NCBI GenBank assembly: GCA_947589595.1
Contig: CANQBV010000006.1
Location: 1 to 64,000, forward strand
DNA length: 64,000 nt
Direction: 5' to 3'
Source: an uncultured Clostridia bacterium
Lineage (GTDB): Bacteria; Bacillota; Clostridia; Oscillospirales; SIG627
Under the pieces are notes generated by a model. It was not told the origin of the DNA, did not search any database, and worked only from the letters and a program-made list of their open reading frames with translations. The first letter of the stretch is position 1. Every line of letters starts with the position of its first letter. Made by a program: the position numbers and the translations under genes. Below, piece by piece: positions 58,719 to 64,000 of this stretch.

Positions 58719-59417
58719 TTGGAAGCTATGTCGAGAAATTTATTCCGAAACGAATGTAAGTACTATATCAGCTACCCTGTTGCGCGCCTGCTCGAGCAGC
58801 GATTGGAAAAAATATTCGTCCGAGATCCTTATTCCGAATCAAACGGCGCCTATCGCATCCGCAGCCTATATTTTGATAATCCGCAGCGGCAAGCCTATTT
58901 TGATAAGCTTTCCGGCGTTGCCGACCGGGAAAAATACCGCATTCGTTTTTATAACCGATCCGATTCCTTTATTCAGCTGGAAAAAAAGAAAAAAGTCGGG
59001 GATAAAATTCTAAAGACCGGCGAAAGCCTTTCCCGTGGGGAAGCCGAGCGTCTGGTACGGGGAGACAGCGAATTTCTCCTGAATTCCGAAAAGTCCCTGC
59101 TTTGCGAGTTTGCCGCCCGTGCACGGTTCGAAAAATTATCGCCGCTTGTTTTTGTGGACTACACCCGCCGCGCGTTTCTGTATTCTTCAAGCAATCTGCG
59201 CATCACTCTTGACAGCAACGTCACCGAGACCGCCTTCCGGGGCTCGCTTTTTGATTTCTCGCAGCCGGCGATTCCTGTACTGGAGCCGCAACAGGTGATT
59301 TTAGAAGTGAAGTTTGACGGCGTTCTGCCGCCGTTGGCGCGCGCGCTGCTGGCCGATATTCCGGCAGTCGGCGCCGCTATTTCCAAATACTGCAAATGCT
59401 GTGAAATGCTGTTTTAG
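58719..59417 (+). CDS. VTC-domain protein (polyphosphate polymerase-like)
   Basis: A 232-residue protein with the triphosphate tunnel fold of the VTC4 catalytic domain: RNECKYYISY, YRIRSLYFDN, KYRIRFYNR, QLEKKKKVGDKILKTG, CEFAARARFEKLSPLVFVDYTRRAF (given to locate the central strands), RITLDSNV and VILEVKFDG. The basic and acidic tunnel residues are present, so it may polymerise phosphate. Start is TTG 58719 with AAGGA ten bases upstream; ATG 58728 is an alternative. Followed by DUF4956 after five to eleven bases, the common bacterial pairing. Confidence 0.85.
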   Translation: MEAMSRNLFRNECKYYISYPVARLLEQRLEKIFVRDPYSESNGAYRIRSLYFDNPQRQAYFDKLSGVADREKYRIRFYNRSDSFIQLEKKKKVGDKILKTGESLSRGEAERLVRGDSEFLLNSEKSLLCEFAARARFEKLSPLVFVDYTRRAFLYSSSNLRITLDSNVTETAFRGSLFDFSQPAIPVLEPQQVILEVKFDGVLPPLARALLADIPAVGAAISKYCKCCEMLF

Positions 59418-59428
59418 AAAGGATGTCT

Positions 59429-60106
59429 ATGCAAACCGTAATCAATTTTTTCCGAGATACGTTTCTCGATGAAATGCAGACCGCCATGTCCGGCGACCGC
59501 ATCGCCAGCGGGCTTTTGGTGGCGTTTTTCCTCTCGCTCTTTGCGGTGCTGGTTTACCGGATTACCTACCAGGGCGTGGTGTTCAGTAAAAGCTATTGCT
59601 TCTCTCTTGTTTTAGCCGCTATGGTGACCAGCGTGATTATCATGACCGTGACCACCAATCTCATGCTTTCGCTCGGCATGGTGGGGGCGCTCTCAATCGT
59701 ACGCTTTCGTACCGCAGTCAAGGAACCCAACGATACGGTTTTTATGTTTTGGTCCATATGCATCGGCATTATGGCGGGCGCAGGGCTGATCTATATTTCC
59801 ATCATTACCAATGTCGCTCTCGGGCTTTTGTATCTGCTTTTGTACTTGACGGCGAAAAAAATCAAGGCAGTTCCGTATCTTTTAATGGTACGCTATTTGC
59901 CGAGCGCGAAAGACGAGGTGCAGAATGCGGTTTTATCTTTGCCGAAATCGAAAATCCGTTCCAAAATCGCTTCGGCGGATGCGATTGAACTGTGTATCGA
60001 AGTGCGCCTTGCCCCGAAGGCTCTGGCTCTGGTGGATACCCTTTCCGAAATGGAGGGGGTGCTCACCGCCCAGGCGATCAGCTTCAACGGCGACACCACT
60101 CTGTAA
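59429..60106 (+). CDS. DUF4956 membrane protein
   Basis: A 225-residue membrane protein with four hydrophobic segments in the first 145 residues (LLVAFFLSLFAVLVY, FSLVLAAMVTSVIIM, MLSLGMVGALSIVRFR, and a long pair around MFWSICIGIMAGAGLIYISI) and a soluble C-terminal domain. The GALSIVRFRTAVKEP motif is the family signature. It is typically paired with VTC-domain proteins, and often a CotH-like kinase, in Firmicutes; no CotH follows here. I chose ATG 59429, spaced six bases from AGAAAGG; ATG 59423 touches the ribosome site. Confidence 0.85.
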   Translation: MQTVINFFRDTFLDEMQTAMSGDRIASGLLVAFFLSLFAVLVYRITYQGVVFSKSYCFSLVLAAMVTSVIIMTVTTNLMLSLGMVGALSIVRFRTAVKEPNDTVFMFWSICIGIMAGAGLIYISIITNVALGLLYLLLYLTAKKIKAVPYLLMVRYLPSAKDEVQNAVLSLPKSKIRSKIASADAIELCIEVRLAPKALALVDTLSEMEGVLTAQAISFNGDTTL

Positions 60107-60111
60107 AAGCC

Positions 60112-60149
60112 AAAAACGCTGTTTTCCTTTGGAAAAACAGCGTTTTTTT
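60112..60149. terminator. Bidirectional terminator between DUF4956 and the AlkD-like gene
   Basis: AAAAACGCTGTTTTCC (60112-60127) pairs with GGAAAAACAGCGTTTTT (from 60131) with a small bulge, flanked by A and T runs. Confidence 0.9.
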
Positions 60150-60176
60150 GCAGTTACAAGAGCTTGATTCGGATTT

Positions 60177-60857
60177 TTACTTGATTTTCAGGGTTCGATA
60201 GCAGGCTTTTTCCTCTGCCGGAATGCGGTAGCTTTCCACGGCCTTCTGAATGGCTTTATTGTGAATCCATTTCGGTAATTTCTTTTCGGTCAAATAGGGG
60301 AGTGCCGCTTCTTTTTGCTTGCACAGCGCCGTGGCAAAATACCAGGCGATCATCATATTGACATAATATTCATCCGAACGAATGGCGGCAATTCTCGCCA
60401 TACTGTCTTCCTTGAAATTGCCATTCAGAAAATACCGCAGAAAAAGCCCGATCCCGAACCGCACCGTATAAGGGTGCTCGGCATCCAAAAAGCGGTTCGC
60501 CGCCAGTTCTAAACGCGCCGGATCTTTTTTCAGTGCCTTTGGCGCCAGCAGATCGCAGGTCGCCCAGTTATCGACATACGGCAAAAAGGTTTCCACCGCT
60601 TGCAGGCAAGCGTCAAAATCGCGTATCCGTTCGATCAGCGCGCCGTGCAGATTATTTTCATCATAGTAAAAATGGGGAAGCGTTTGCAAAAATTCCTCTG
60701 CCTCCGGCGTGCCGTAGATTTTCTTGGCAAATTTCCGGATTTCCGGTGTGCGGACGCCCAGGATTCTGTCCGGATCGACGTTTGGAATCAGCTTTTTATG
60801 AAAATCACGATAGGCAGGGTCGCGAAGGGTGTAAAATTCCTCTAAAAGCGCTTTCAT
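60177..60857 (-). CDS. AlkD-like DNA alkylation repair protein
   Basis: HEAT-repeat DNA glycosylase family, 226 residues. The N-terminal VRTPEIRKFAKKI is typical. W98 and D102 in DNWATCD have the four-residue spacing of the catalytic W109/D113 pair of Bacillus AlkD; the late WIHNKAIQKAVESYRI also fits the family. AlkD removes N3- and N7-alkylpurines without base flipping. The start lies one base after the helicase stop (TAA-A-ATG), so it is strongly coupled to the DUF2791/helicase pair. Confidence 0.88.
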   Translation of the reverse strand: MKALLEEFYTLRDPAYRDFHKKLIPNVDPDRILGVRTPEIRKFAKKIYGTPEAEEFLQTLPHFYYDENNLHGALIERIRDFDACLQAVETFLPYVDNWATCDLLAPKALKKDPARLELAANRFLDAEHPYTVRFGIGLFLRYFLNGNFKEDSMARIAAIRSDEYYVNMMIAWYFATALCKQKEAALPYLTEKKLPKWIHNKAIQKAVESYRIPAEEKACYRTLKIK

Positions 60858-60858
60858 T

Positions 60859-63063
60859 TTACATTCTTTCCTTTTTCAGCCTACAGATTTTGTCTTCTAC
60901 TTCCTGCACCTCCAGGTAGTTTTCCGCATAGGCCTTCTGCAAAAGCTTTTGCGGCAGATACGCGTCGTATTTGTCAAATACCGGGTATTCTGTTTTGCTG
61001 ATGAGAGAAGAAAGAGAAAATTCTCCCGCTTCCAAATACTCCTCCAGCGCGCCGATCAAATCGGCGGGCGTTTTGTTTTCCATGCGGAAAGTGAGGTAAT
61101 AGCAGCCGCCGCTTTCGATTTTGCTCAAAACGATTCTGCCGCCGCAGCCGCGCTGTAATATGCGCTTGACCGTGCGGAAAGCACGAGTTCCCAGCCATGG
61201 GAAAAAGACAAAACTGTCTCCCCAAAGGGAAAGAAAGCTCTTTTTGCAAAGCCCTGTGTTCCGGGCAAGCTGACGGGCCTTGCGTAGGCGCTCTTTGGCA
61301 TTGGGCAGCAAATAGGGGTATTCCTCCTCGCCTGTCAGCACTTCGCGCATTTTTTCCAATATGCGGGTGTGGATCTCGCCGCTGTCGCCCGGCCAGGAAA
61401 TCTTCATTTTTCCCTCAACGCCTTTCACATAAATCAGGCGATTCTGGACGTTTACTTCCTCCACCTCCCAAACTCTGCCCGCCAGTGCAAAGCGTTCGCC
61501 GACCGGAGGGGTAGAGGAAATAGTGCCGATCTCCTCGGAACCGCAGCGCACCGTAAAATCCTCGCTGTCCTTAAAAACGGCATAGAATTTAAAGGAATTC
61601 AAAAGCTTTTCCGCTTTCAGCCCGCAAATCAGCTCTTTTTCCTCGGTTCTTTCCAGAAAGTCTTTTTTCAGCATATCAATCAAAAGCTCACGGTAATCTT
61701 CCTCGGAAATATGAGAAAACGGCGGCAGCGTCAGGATCTCTTTTGCCAGACGCGGTGCCGAAAGCGAGCCTTTGGAAGCCAGAAGCGAAAGCGTTTGATG
61801 GAATAAAAGGCTCATTGGCTGCGGTTTGCTGCGCACCGGCTCTACCCAGCGTTCTTTTAAGTACAGTTCAATGATCGCAATCGCCTGCAAAAGCTCCCAG
61901 GGAATGATCTGGTAGATCGGCGCGTTCGGCAAGGGTTCTTCCTCGCGGAAGATCATCAACATTTCCGGGTCTTCTCCCCGGCGGCCGCTTCGTCCCAGCC
62001 GCTGCAGAAACCCGGAAACCGAAGTCGGCGAGCCCTGATTGAGAATGCGCTTTAATTCTCCAATGTCGATTCCCAATTCCAGTGTGACCGTCGCACAAGC
62101 GGTGATCGCTTCGGCCTTGTTTTTCAGCGCGTCCTCGGTTTCCTCGCGGATCGCGCCGGAAAGATTGCCGTGGTGAATATAGAAACGGTCGATCTCATTT
62201 TTTTTGCGCGCAATTTGCCGCAAGGTCGCGGTAATTTCCTCGGTTTCCTCGCGTGAGTTGGAAAACACCACGCACTTTGCGCCTTTTGAAGCTTTGTAGA
62301 TAAATTCGCTGGCGGCGTCCACTACTTCGTCTTTTTCCGTGGTATAGAAATGCTCCAACCCCAATTTCCAGGAAATACTGTCCTTGGGGACAACAATTGT
62401 TTTTGTCGGTCTGCCGCTGCCCTCACTCAGCCATTCTGCCACGCCATCGGGATTGCCGATCGTTGCGGAAAGAGCGATCCTTCGGGCGGAAAACCCGCAC
62501 AGCCGGGCGATCCGCTGCAGTTGACACAAAATCTGATTGCCGCGATCCGATCCCATCAGCGCATGAATTTCATCCAGGATGATATACTGCACATTGCCGA
62601 AAAGCCGCGGAATATCATTCGCGCGACGGCACAGCATACTTTCCAGGGATTCCGGCGTGATTTGCAGGAGTCCCTCCGGCTTTTTCAAAAATTTTTCCTT
62701 GTGGCTCCGGCTGACGTCTCCGTGCCAGCGAAAAACCGGCATTCCGCTTTCCTGCAAAAGATCTTCCATGCGGGAAAACTGATTGTTGATCAGGGATTTT
62801 AAGGGAGAAATATAAAGCGCCATGCAGTTTTCCGGCCCGGCCTCCTGCATTTGGGAAAGAATGGGGAAAAAGGCGGCTTCCGTTTTGCCGGAAGAGGTTT
62901 CGGAGCAGAGCAAAAGGTTATCTTCTTTGAAAAACAAAACCTCCGCCGCTTCTACCTGTACCCGGCGCAGCTCCGTCCAACCGGAACGGTAAATATAGTC
63001 CTGGATAAACGGAGAAAAACGGGAAAACACCGCCTGCGCTTTTTGATCAAGGCTGCTTTTCAT
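60859..63063 (-). CDS. Lhr-like DEAD/DEAH-box helicase (BrxHI-like)
   Basis: A 734-residue SF2 helicase with Q-motif-like start, Walker A SETSSGKTEA (54-63), DEIH (164-167), SAT (199-201), VVFSNSREETEE (motif IV), TATVTLELGIDIG-like motif V (here ACATVTLELGIDIG) and QRLGRSGRRGE (motif VI). A C-terminal winged-helix and cysteine-poor domain of about 350 residues follows, as in Lhr-like proteins. Such helicases pair with DUF2791 ATPases in BREX type 2 (BrxD/BrxHI) and in stand-alone clusters. It overlaps the DUF2791 gene by four bases. Confidence 0.9.
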   Translation of the reverse strand: MKSSLDQKAQAVFSRFSPFIQDYIYRSGWTELRRVQVEAAEVLFFKEDNLLLCSETSSGKTEAAFFPILSQMQEAGPENCMALYISPLKSLINNQFSRMEDLLQESGMPVFRWHGDVSRSHKEKFLKKPEGLLQITPESLESMLCRRANDIPRLFGNVQYIILDEIHALMGSDRGNQILCQLQRIARLCGFSARRIALSATIGNPDGVAEWLSEGSGRPTKTIVVPKDSISWKLGLEHFYTTEKDEVVDAASEFIYKASKGAKCVVFSNSREETEEITATLRQIARKKNEIDRFYIHHGNLSGAIREETEDALKNKAEAITACATVTLELGIDIGELKRILNQGSPTSVSGFLQRLGRSGRRGEDPEMLMIFREEEPLPNAPIYQIIPWELLQAIAIIELYLKERWVEPVRSKPQPMSLLFHQTLSLLASKGSLSAPRLAKEILTLPPFSHISEEDYRELLIDMLKKDFLERTEEKELICGLKAEKLLNSFKFYAVFKDSEDFTVRCGSEEIGTISSTPPVGERFALAGRVWEVEEVNVQNRLIYVKGVEGKMKISWPGDSGEIHTRILEKMREVLTGEEEYPYLLPNAKERLRKARQLARNTGLCKKSFLSLWGDSFVFFPWLGTRAFRTVKRILQRGCGGRIVLSKIESGGCYYLTFRMENKTPADLIGALEEYLEAGEFSLSSLISKTEYPVFDKYDAYLPQKLLQKAYAENYLEVQEVEDKICRLKKERM

Positions 63064-64000
63064 AGCTGTATCTCACTCAAATCAAAAAAGGAATCCTCTT
63101 CGTTTTCGGAAGCGGCGTTTTCGTTTTCCATTTTCAGACCGATCAGATCGGTAAATTTCGCTTCCGGGTCCGTAAACATCAGATCCAAAATATTGAGAAA
63201 ATCACGGGTTACCTCACGCGGGGTAATCATTTCATTCGCGCCCATTTTATCCAGCGCTACCTGTAAAAACGCCAGAATATCCTCATTTTCAAGCTTCGGC
63301 TGATAGTTGTAATAGGAGGAATGCAAAAGAATCAGTCTTTTACAAAGGGCAAACAGTTCATTGTCATTCAGCCGCTGCAGATATATCAGCGGTGAGAGCA
63401 GATTCTGCTTGCCGAACGGAATAAATTTTCCGGGGACAAGGCGGCTCTTTAGGGCTTCGTAGCTGAAAATGCCGCGCCGCGGATCTTCTATCAGCTGCGG
63501 CGTCGCGCCCAAAAAGATCCCCACGCCCTCGGCCTTGCCCTGCATGGTGTCGTTGAACATGGCAAGAATCTTTTCATAGTTGTTTTCCCGGGAAATCCGG
63601 TTGGGAATTTTGTAGAGATTTACGCATTCATCAAAGAAAATGCAAAAGCCCTGATAGCCGATCGCGCGGAAAAACTGTGCGTATAGCTTTAGAACGTCAT
63701 ACCAATTCTGGTCGTCCACAATGGTTCCGATTTTCAAAAGAGAAGCGCGCGCCTGCGTTTTGGTGGCAAATTCACCGCGCAGCCAGCGCAGCGCGTCCTC
63801 GCAAAGCTCGTCGTTTTGCTGCTTATAGCCGAGGTAATACAAATTTAAAACCTTGGCAAAGTCAAATCCGTTTACAAAGCCGCGCAGCTTTTCGGAAACG
63901 GTAAAAATTTCTCTCTGCACAAATTCAGCCAGCTCGGCGCTTTCCGGCGACAGCTTTTCTTCCAAAATGCCCTTTTGCTGCAGGGCGGCAAACCAACCGG
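63060..64000 (-). CDS. DUF2791 ATP-binding protein (BrxD-like), 5' part outside the window
   Basis: The frame continues off the right edge without a stop, so only the last 313 residues are visible; the N terminus with Walker A should be beyond 64000. What is seen fits the C-terminal part of DUF2791 ATPases: QGFCIFFDECVNLYKI (Walker B with sensor Glu), IFLGATPQLIEDPRRGIFSYEALKSRL (given as GATPQLIEDPRRG and SYEALKSRL), and MITPREVTRDFLNILD near the end. BrxD is the BREX type 2 member. Ends ATGA into the helicase. Upstream genes, often TerB-N proteins, are not visible. Confidence 0.85.
   Translation of the reverse strand, partial: GWFAALQQKGILEEKLSPESAELAEFVQREIFTVSEKLRGFVNGFDFAKVLNLYYLGYKQQNDELCEDALRWLRGEFATKTQARASLLKIGTIVDDQNWYDVLKLYAQFFRAIGYQGFCIFFDECVNLYKIPNRISRENNYEKILAMFNDTMQGKAEGVGIFLGATPQLIEDPRRGIFSYEALKSRLVPGKFIPFGKQNLLSPLIYLQRLNDNELFALCKRLILLHSSYYNYQPKLENEDILAFLQVALDKMGANEMITPREVTRDFLNILDLMFTDPEAKFTDLIGLKMENENAASENEEDSFFDLSEIQL

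What the first reader, a model, noticed from the sequence alone, without database searches (positions are those of the whole stretch)
60177..64000. Coupled triad of DUF2791 ATPase, Lhr-like helicase and AlkD-like glycosylase
Seen: three minus-strand genes joined by a 4-base overlap and a 1-base gap, ending in a shared terminator. Known: DUF2791 plus Lhr-like helicase is the BrxD/BrxHI pair of BREX type 2 and also occurs in stand-alone clusters with TerB-N proteins. Inference: the addition of an AlkD-type glycosylase at a translationally coupled position suggests a DNA-damage or defence module in which base removal and ATP-driven DNA remodelling work together. No PglX, PglZ or BrxC is visible, but the upstream side is cut off.
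Basis: partly seen in the sequence, partly recalled or inferred. Interest (0 to 1): 0.65.

Follow-up and report, generated by a model that had tools for sequence, protein, structure and literature searches.

The report
Shango phage-defence operon with AlkD passenger
Three of these four bacterial genes are the known anti-phage system Shango, and the DNA-repair gene AlkD at the end of the row is there only in this one species, so the trio is a known system with a local neighbour and not a new repair-defence module.

Summary
The contig continues past 64000, and the next gene upstream (window 64375-65901) is a TerB-type SngA. SngA, the DUF2791/BrxD-like ATPase and the Lhr/BrxHI-like helicase together are Shango (SngABC), a published three-gene anti-phage system; PADLOC names all three. 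There is no BREX operon. The AlkD-like gene is a genuine AlkD relative that keeps the four active-site residues, and it is translationally coupled to sngC. Its linkage is nevertheless private to this species. Four congeners carry SngABC at the same tRNA-Thr/tRNA-Tyr locus without it, and two of these also share the VTC-DUF4956 side. None of the other Shango loci examined has AlkD beside it: about 88 distinct loci were scanned, and a further 69 Shango- or BREX-positive genomes were searched. AlkD occurs in Shango-positive genomes at the background rate (13/28 versus 143/363, p = 0.55). Best reading: an ordinary, vertically inherited Shango system with a captured base-excision-repair gene. Side findings: a giant helicase/nuclease-like protein often fills the 3' slot in this family, and several Clostridia keep sngAB and sngC apart.

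The parts
63060..64000 (-). sngB: BrxD-like AAA ATPase (DUF2791 / BrxC_BrxD); the full gene runs to window coordinate 64394 (444 aa)
   Evidence: Pfam PF10923 1.7e-139, PADLOC SngB 2.3e-160 against BrxD 1.5e-35; Walker A GKYGSGKS (63) and Walker B IFFDEC (252)
60859..63063 (-). sngC: SF2 DEAD/DEAH, Lhr/BrxHI-type helicase, 734 aa
   Evidence: PADLOC SngC 1.3e-237 against BrxHI 1.4e-135; motifs SETSSGKT, DEIH, SAT, QRLGRSGR
60177..60857 (-). AlkD-like alkylpurine DNA glycosylase, 226 aa, coupled to sngC; lineage-specific addition, not part of Shango
   Evidence: Pfam PF08713 6.7e-13; profile match to B. cereus AlkD 3BVS 1e-6 with W98/D102/R133/W172 aligned to W109/D113/R148/W187; absent from the same locus in congeners
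60113..60150 (.). bidirectional terminator-like hairpin shared by the convergent DUF4956 and AlkD ends
   Evidence: fold -26.4 / -23.2 kcal/mol for the two strands; a similar hairpin follows sngC directly in G001
58719..60106 (+). convergent neighbours VTC-domain protein (58719-59417) and DUF4956 protein (59423-60106), which mark the conserved 3' side of the locus
   Evidence: Pfam PF09359, PF16316; same order in G001 and G005

Best explanation
The operon sngA-sngB-sngC is a complete Shango anti-phage system in an uncultured Oscillospiraceae/Clostridia species. It is inherited vertically at a fixed chromosomal locus beside tRNA-Thr/tRNA-Tyr. Shown here: the gene content, order, motifs and conservation. 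Inferred from the families: the TerB-type SngA senses or organises, the AAA ATPase SngB and the SF2 helicase SngC act on DNA with ATP, and the trio blocks phage propagation as in Pseudomonas and E. coli. The molecular mechanism of Shango was not found described in the papers read. The AlkD-like gene was added in this species between the sngC stop codon and the operon's terminator. It most likely works as an ordinary alkylpurine glycosylase that is co-expressed by read-through and translational coupling, not as a Shango subunit.
For: PADLOC SngA 1.2e-15, SngB 2.3e-160, SngC 1.3e-237, the last two far better than their BREX counterparts. TerB_C is found in all 18 aligned SngA proteins and TerB_N in 14. 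The ABC order is kept with overlaps or short gaps in most loci. The same SngABC locus, with tRNA-Thr/Tyr upstream, is present in G001, G002, G003 and G005 without AlkD; G001 and G005 also share VTC-DUF4956 downstream. AlkD is on a different contig in every other family genome that has both. AlkD was found in 1 of 92 Shango loci scanned, the window's own. The nearest AlkD to an SngB elsewhere is about 27 kb away. Co-occurrence is at background, 13/28 versus 143/363, p = 0.55. Shango activity is reported in PMC10250203.
Against: SngA of this species is divergent: TerB_C is below Pfam's curated cut-off (23.7 against 26.3 bits) and TerB_N was not detected. Phage defence by a Clostridia Shango has not been tested here. 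Conserved locus, high SngB/SngC identity and dispersed gene order are more housekeeping-like than a mobile defence island. The tight coupling of AlkD to sngC would fit functional recruitment in this species.
Confidence: 0.87

Rival explanations
1. AlkD has been recruited in this species as a fourth working part of Shango: it excises modified or damaged bases from phage DNA, and the abasic sites are then processed by the ATPase and helicase.
For: One-base gap and ribosome-binding-like sequence inside sngC; AlkD active-site residues kept; DNA glycosylases of another fold, the uracil-DNA-glycosylase-like Brig proteins, do defend bacteria by excising modified phage bases (PMC11078745, PMC13160076).
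Against: No other Shango locus has AlkD beside it; co-occurrence is at background; AlkD relatives are common genes in the class, 156 of 391 genomes; PADLOC has no defence family for it.
Confidence: 0.06
2. The cluster is a partial or type 2 BREX system (BrxD plus BrxHI).
For: BrxD and BrxHI profiles match the two proteins.
Against: The SngB and SngC profiles score far higher; the upstream gene is TerB-type SngA; no PglX, PglZ or BrxC lies in the 15 kb stretch around the operon.
Confidence: 0.01
3. SngABC in these Clostridia is a stably inherited chromosome-maintenance (DNA integrity) system rather than, or besides, a phage-defence system.
For: Present at the same locus in four congeners and in 12 of 22 family genomes; SngB and SngC identity matches neighbouring core genes; where sngC is not next to sngAB the same genome still encodes an SngC relative elsewhere (8 of 8).
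Against: SngA evolves fast (33-39% identity within the genus), as expected of a phage-facing part; Shango gives phage protection in Pseudomonas; absent from 10 of 22 family genomes. No control was run for SngC-like helicases in genomes without SngB.
Confidence: 0.12

Closest known systems
Shango (SngA-SngB-SngC; Millman et al. 2022; Johnson et al. 2023, PMC10250203)
   Same: Same three genes in the same order and all three PADLOC families; stand-alone operon
   Different: A fourth, AlkD-like gene follows sngC; SngA is divergent; the locus is conserved in the genus instead of lying in a hypervariable island
BREX type 2 BrxD/BrxHI
   Same: Homologous ATPase and helicase families
   Different: No PglX, PglZ or BrxC; TerB-type third gene; profile scores favour Shango
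Bacillus cereus AlkD (3BVS, 3JX7, 5CL3-5CLB)
   Same: Same superfamily; W109, D113, R148 and W187 conserved
   Different: Remote in sequence (needed a profile to match); encoded at the end of a defence operon in this species only
Brig1/Brig2/Brig3 anti-phage DNA glycosylases
   Same: Glycosylases used in defence
   Different: Brig1 and Brig3 belong to the uracil-DNA-glycosylase superfamily (PMC13160076), not the AlkD HEAT-like fold; no homology claimed

Membership tests
Shango | SngA: TerB-type (TerB_N/TerB_C) protein first in the operon | tested here: met
   L002:5376-6902 (window 64375-65901): PADLOC SngA 1.2e-15, Pfam TerB_C 6.2e-5, slightly under the curated cut-off; all 18 aligned relatives hit TerB_C and 14 hit TerB_N
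Shango | SngB: BrxD-like AAA ATPase with intact Walker motifs | tested here: met
   PADLOC SngB 2.3e-160; motifs present, core residues invariant in 19 relatives
Shango | SngC: SF2 helicase of the SngC/BrxHI clade | tested here: met
   PADLOC SngC 1.3e-237 over residues 12-723
Shango | Protection against phages | not testable with these tools
   Reported for the Pseudomonas PA14 system in PMC10250203; not for this species
BREX (type 2) | PglX methyltransferase, PglZ and BrxC in the same locus | tested here: not met
   Listed ORFs and family scans of the stretch from 5 kb inside the window to 10 kb beyond it show none
AlkD alkylpurine DNA glycosylase | PF08713 fold family and catalytic W/D/R/W set | tested here: met
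   Pfam 6.7e-13; residues aligned to AlkD structures
AlkD alkylpurine DNA glycosylase | Glycosylase activity on alkylated DNA | not testable with these tools
   Needs purified protein
   1 of 92 loci, the window's own; co-occurrence p = 0.55

The most novel reading that the evidence does not exclude
In this species AlkD has become a functional fourth Shango component that excises modified bases from invading DNA before helicase/ATPase processing, a glycosylase-assisted Shango variant.
Probability: 0.05. Interest if true: 0.5.

Novelty: new member of a known kind. Interest (0 to 1): 0.15.

Why it matters
It removes a candidate 'repair plus defence' module from the list and names the locus correctly as Shango. 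It adds a clear case of Shango inherited vertically at one locus in rumen and gut Clostridia, and it shows that tight translational coupling to a defence operon is not by itself evidence of shared function.

Tried and rejected
BREX: rejected after extending the contig. A first genome-contig scan with the single SngB protein found nothing; an alignment query then gave 80 loci. A single-sequence PDB search of the AlkD-like protein gave only chance hits; the family profile matched AlkD. An AlkD tree did not resolve the gene's origin: the window copy pairs weakly with a genome of another family and not with its congener G005. AlkD relatives in viral contigs: two only, and their neighbourhoods were not examined. 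The ORFs 3' of sngB in loci lacking sngC turned out to be housekeeping genes in those scanned (AlaS, BacA, FtsK, SpoU methylase, DprA, TopA), so no alternative helicase replaces SngC there. Structure prediction was not used because profile evidence sufficed.

Full report
WHAT IS THERE. The window ends inside an operon on the minus strand. Searches confirm the AlkD-like gene (60177-60857), the helicase (60859-63063) and an ATPase that runs off the window. The hairpin at about 60113-60150 is strong on both strands and lies between convergent genes.

THE MISSING END. The contig is 82,269 bases long, so it could be read on (window coordinate = L002 coordinate + 58999, checked). The ATPase is 444 aa (to 64394) and is preceded, with a 20-base overlap, by a 508-aa gene at 64375-65901. 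PADLOC calls the three proteins SngA (1.2e-15), SngB (2.3e-160; BrxD only 1.5e-35) and SngC (1.3e-237; BrxHI 1.4e-135). Pfam sees BrxC_BrxD in SngB and a TerB_C domain, just under the curated cut-off, in SngA. Across 18 aligned SngA proteins all match TerB_C and 14 match TerB_N. This is Shango, the TerB/ATPase/helicase system shown to restrict phages when PA14's copy is put in PAO1 (PMC10250203). SngC's place beside BrxHI, DruE and DpdJ in an immune-helicase clade is from PMC12278908. Two tRNA genes, Thr and Tyr, lie just upstream, and a promoter-like site precedes sngA. No BREX genes were found in the 15 kb stretch L002.

IS ALKD PART OF IT? The protein is a real AlkD relative: PF08713, profile match to AlkD structures (1e-6), and W98, D102, R133 and W172 falling on AlkD W109, D113, R148 and W187 (the residue roles are from general knowledge of AlkD). 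But its place is private to this species. In the same genus G001, G002, G003 and G005 have sngA-sngB-sngC with the same two tRNA genes upstream. In G001 and G005 the downstream side is also the same (VTC, DUF4956), and sngC is followed directly by a short gap with a terminator-like hairpin in G001 and a similar repeat in G005. Only G005 of these has an AlkD, on another contig. Of 22 family genomes 12 have SngB and 12 have AlkD; the two are adjacent only in the window's genome.

WIDER COUNT. Eighty Shango loci from named genomes and twelve family loci were scanned with profiles. 74 hold all three Shango genes, and one, the window's, holds AlkD. In 48 and 21 genomes searched because of an SngB or BrxD hit (or close kinship), no PF08713 gene lies near that hit (nearest about 27 and 33 kb). 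In 391 class genomes AlkD relatives are common (156) and no more frequent with Shango (13/28) than without (143/363), Fisher p = 0.55. The lists were drawn from species-level genomes, many of them fragmented, so a few missed adjacencies are possible, but not a recurrent one.

MECHANISM. Shown: the parts, order, intact ATPase and helicase motifs, and coupling. Inferred: SngA as sensor or scaffold, SngB and SngC as ATP-driven DNA machines blocking phage, as in the tested relatives. AlkD is inferred to be a repair glycosylase that was inserted before the terminator and is expressed with the operon. A recruited role cannot be excluded from sequence, and is given 5-6%.

WHAT ELSE THE FAMILY SHOWS. 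In six of the twelve family loci (G008, G015, G016, G017, G018, G021) the slot after sngC holds a 1461-1725 aa protein, closely following or overlapping sngC, related to PADLOC candidate PDC-S37. The G015 copy has a MTES_1575 nuclease domain at its end, and four of the six have a Walker A motif. The window's own genome has a 1394-aa relative on another contig. G020 has this gene beside DUF4956 and no Shango, so VTC-DUF4956-[SngABC]-giant looks like an old block that has been rearranged, not a dedicated partnership. In eight genomes where sngAB stands without an adjacent sngC, an SngC relative is encoded elsewhere (no control for genomes lacking SngB).

VERDICT. Known system, correctly suspected in part; the AlkD coupling, which made the finding interesting, is a local accident or at most a very recent recruitment.

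Noticed in passing
L031:1711-6093, L032:1121-6208, L033:11829-16259, L034:11006-16054, L035:573-5747, L036:11602-16629: In six of twelve family Shango loci a giant 1461-1725 aa protein (PADLOC PDC-S37-like; MTES_1575 nuclease end in L034) occupies the slot right after sngC; two of the six lack the Walker A motif.
   Followed up: partly
L185:5711-9895 (window's genome, contig C5): The window's own genome carries a 1394-aa relative of that giant protein away from Shango, on a different contig.
   Followed up: partly
L187 (G020:C32:55408-61243): The giant gene lies beside DUF4956 with no Shango in this genome, which looks like the same block without SngABC.
   Followed up: partly
L037, L102, L105, L107, L112, L114, L118, L165: sngA-sngB stand without an adjacent sngC (next to housekeeping genes such as alaS, bacA-ftsK or dprA-topA in those scanned), yet all eight genomes encode an SngC relative elsewhere: a split Shango.
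   Followed up: partly
window 64375-65901 (L002:5376-6902) and congeners L027-L030: SngA is only 33-39% identical within the genus while SngB is 65-75% and SngC 61-69%, so the TerB-type part evolves fastest.
   Followed up: no
window 58719-60106; L031:11247-12620; L033:4095-5489: A VTC-domain/DUF4956 pair flanks Shango in two genera in two different arrangements (convergent after sngC, or co-directional just before sngA).
   Followed up: partly
L191:8537-9922: On a Paenibacillus cellulositrophicus plasmid a 461-aa hypothetical protein starts 25 bases after sngC; accessory genes differ between lineages.
   Followed up: no
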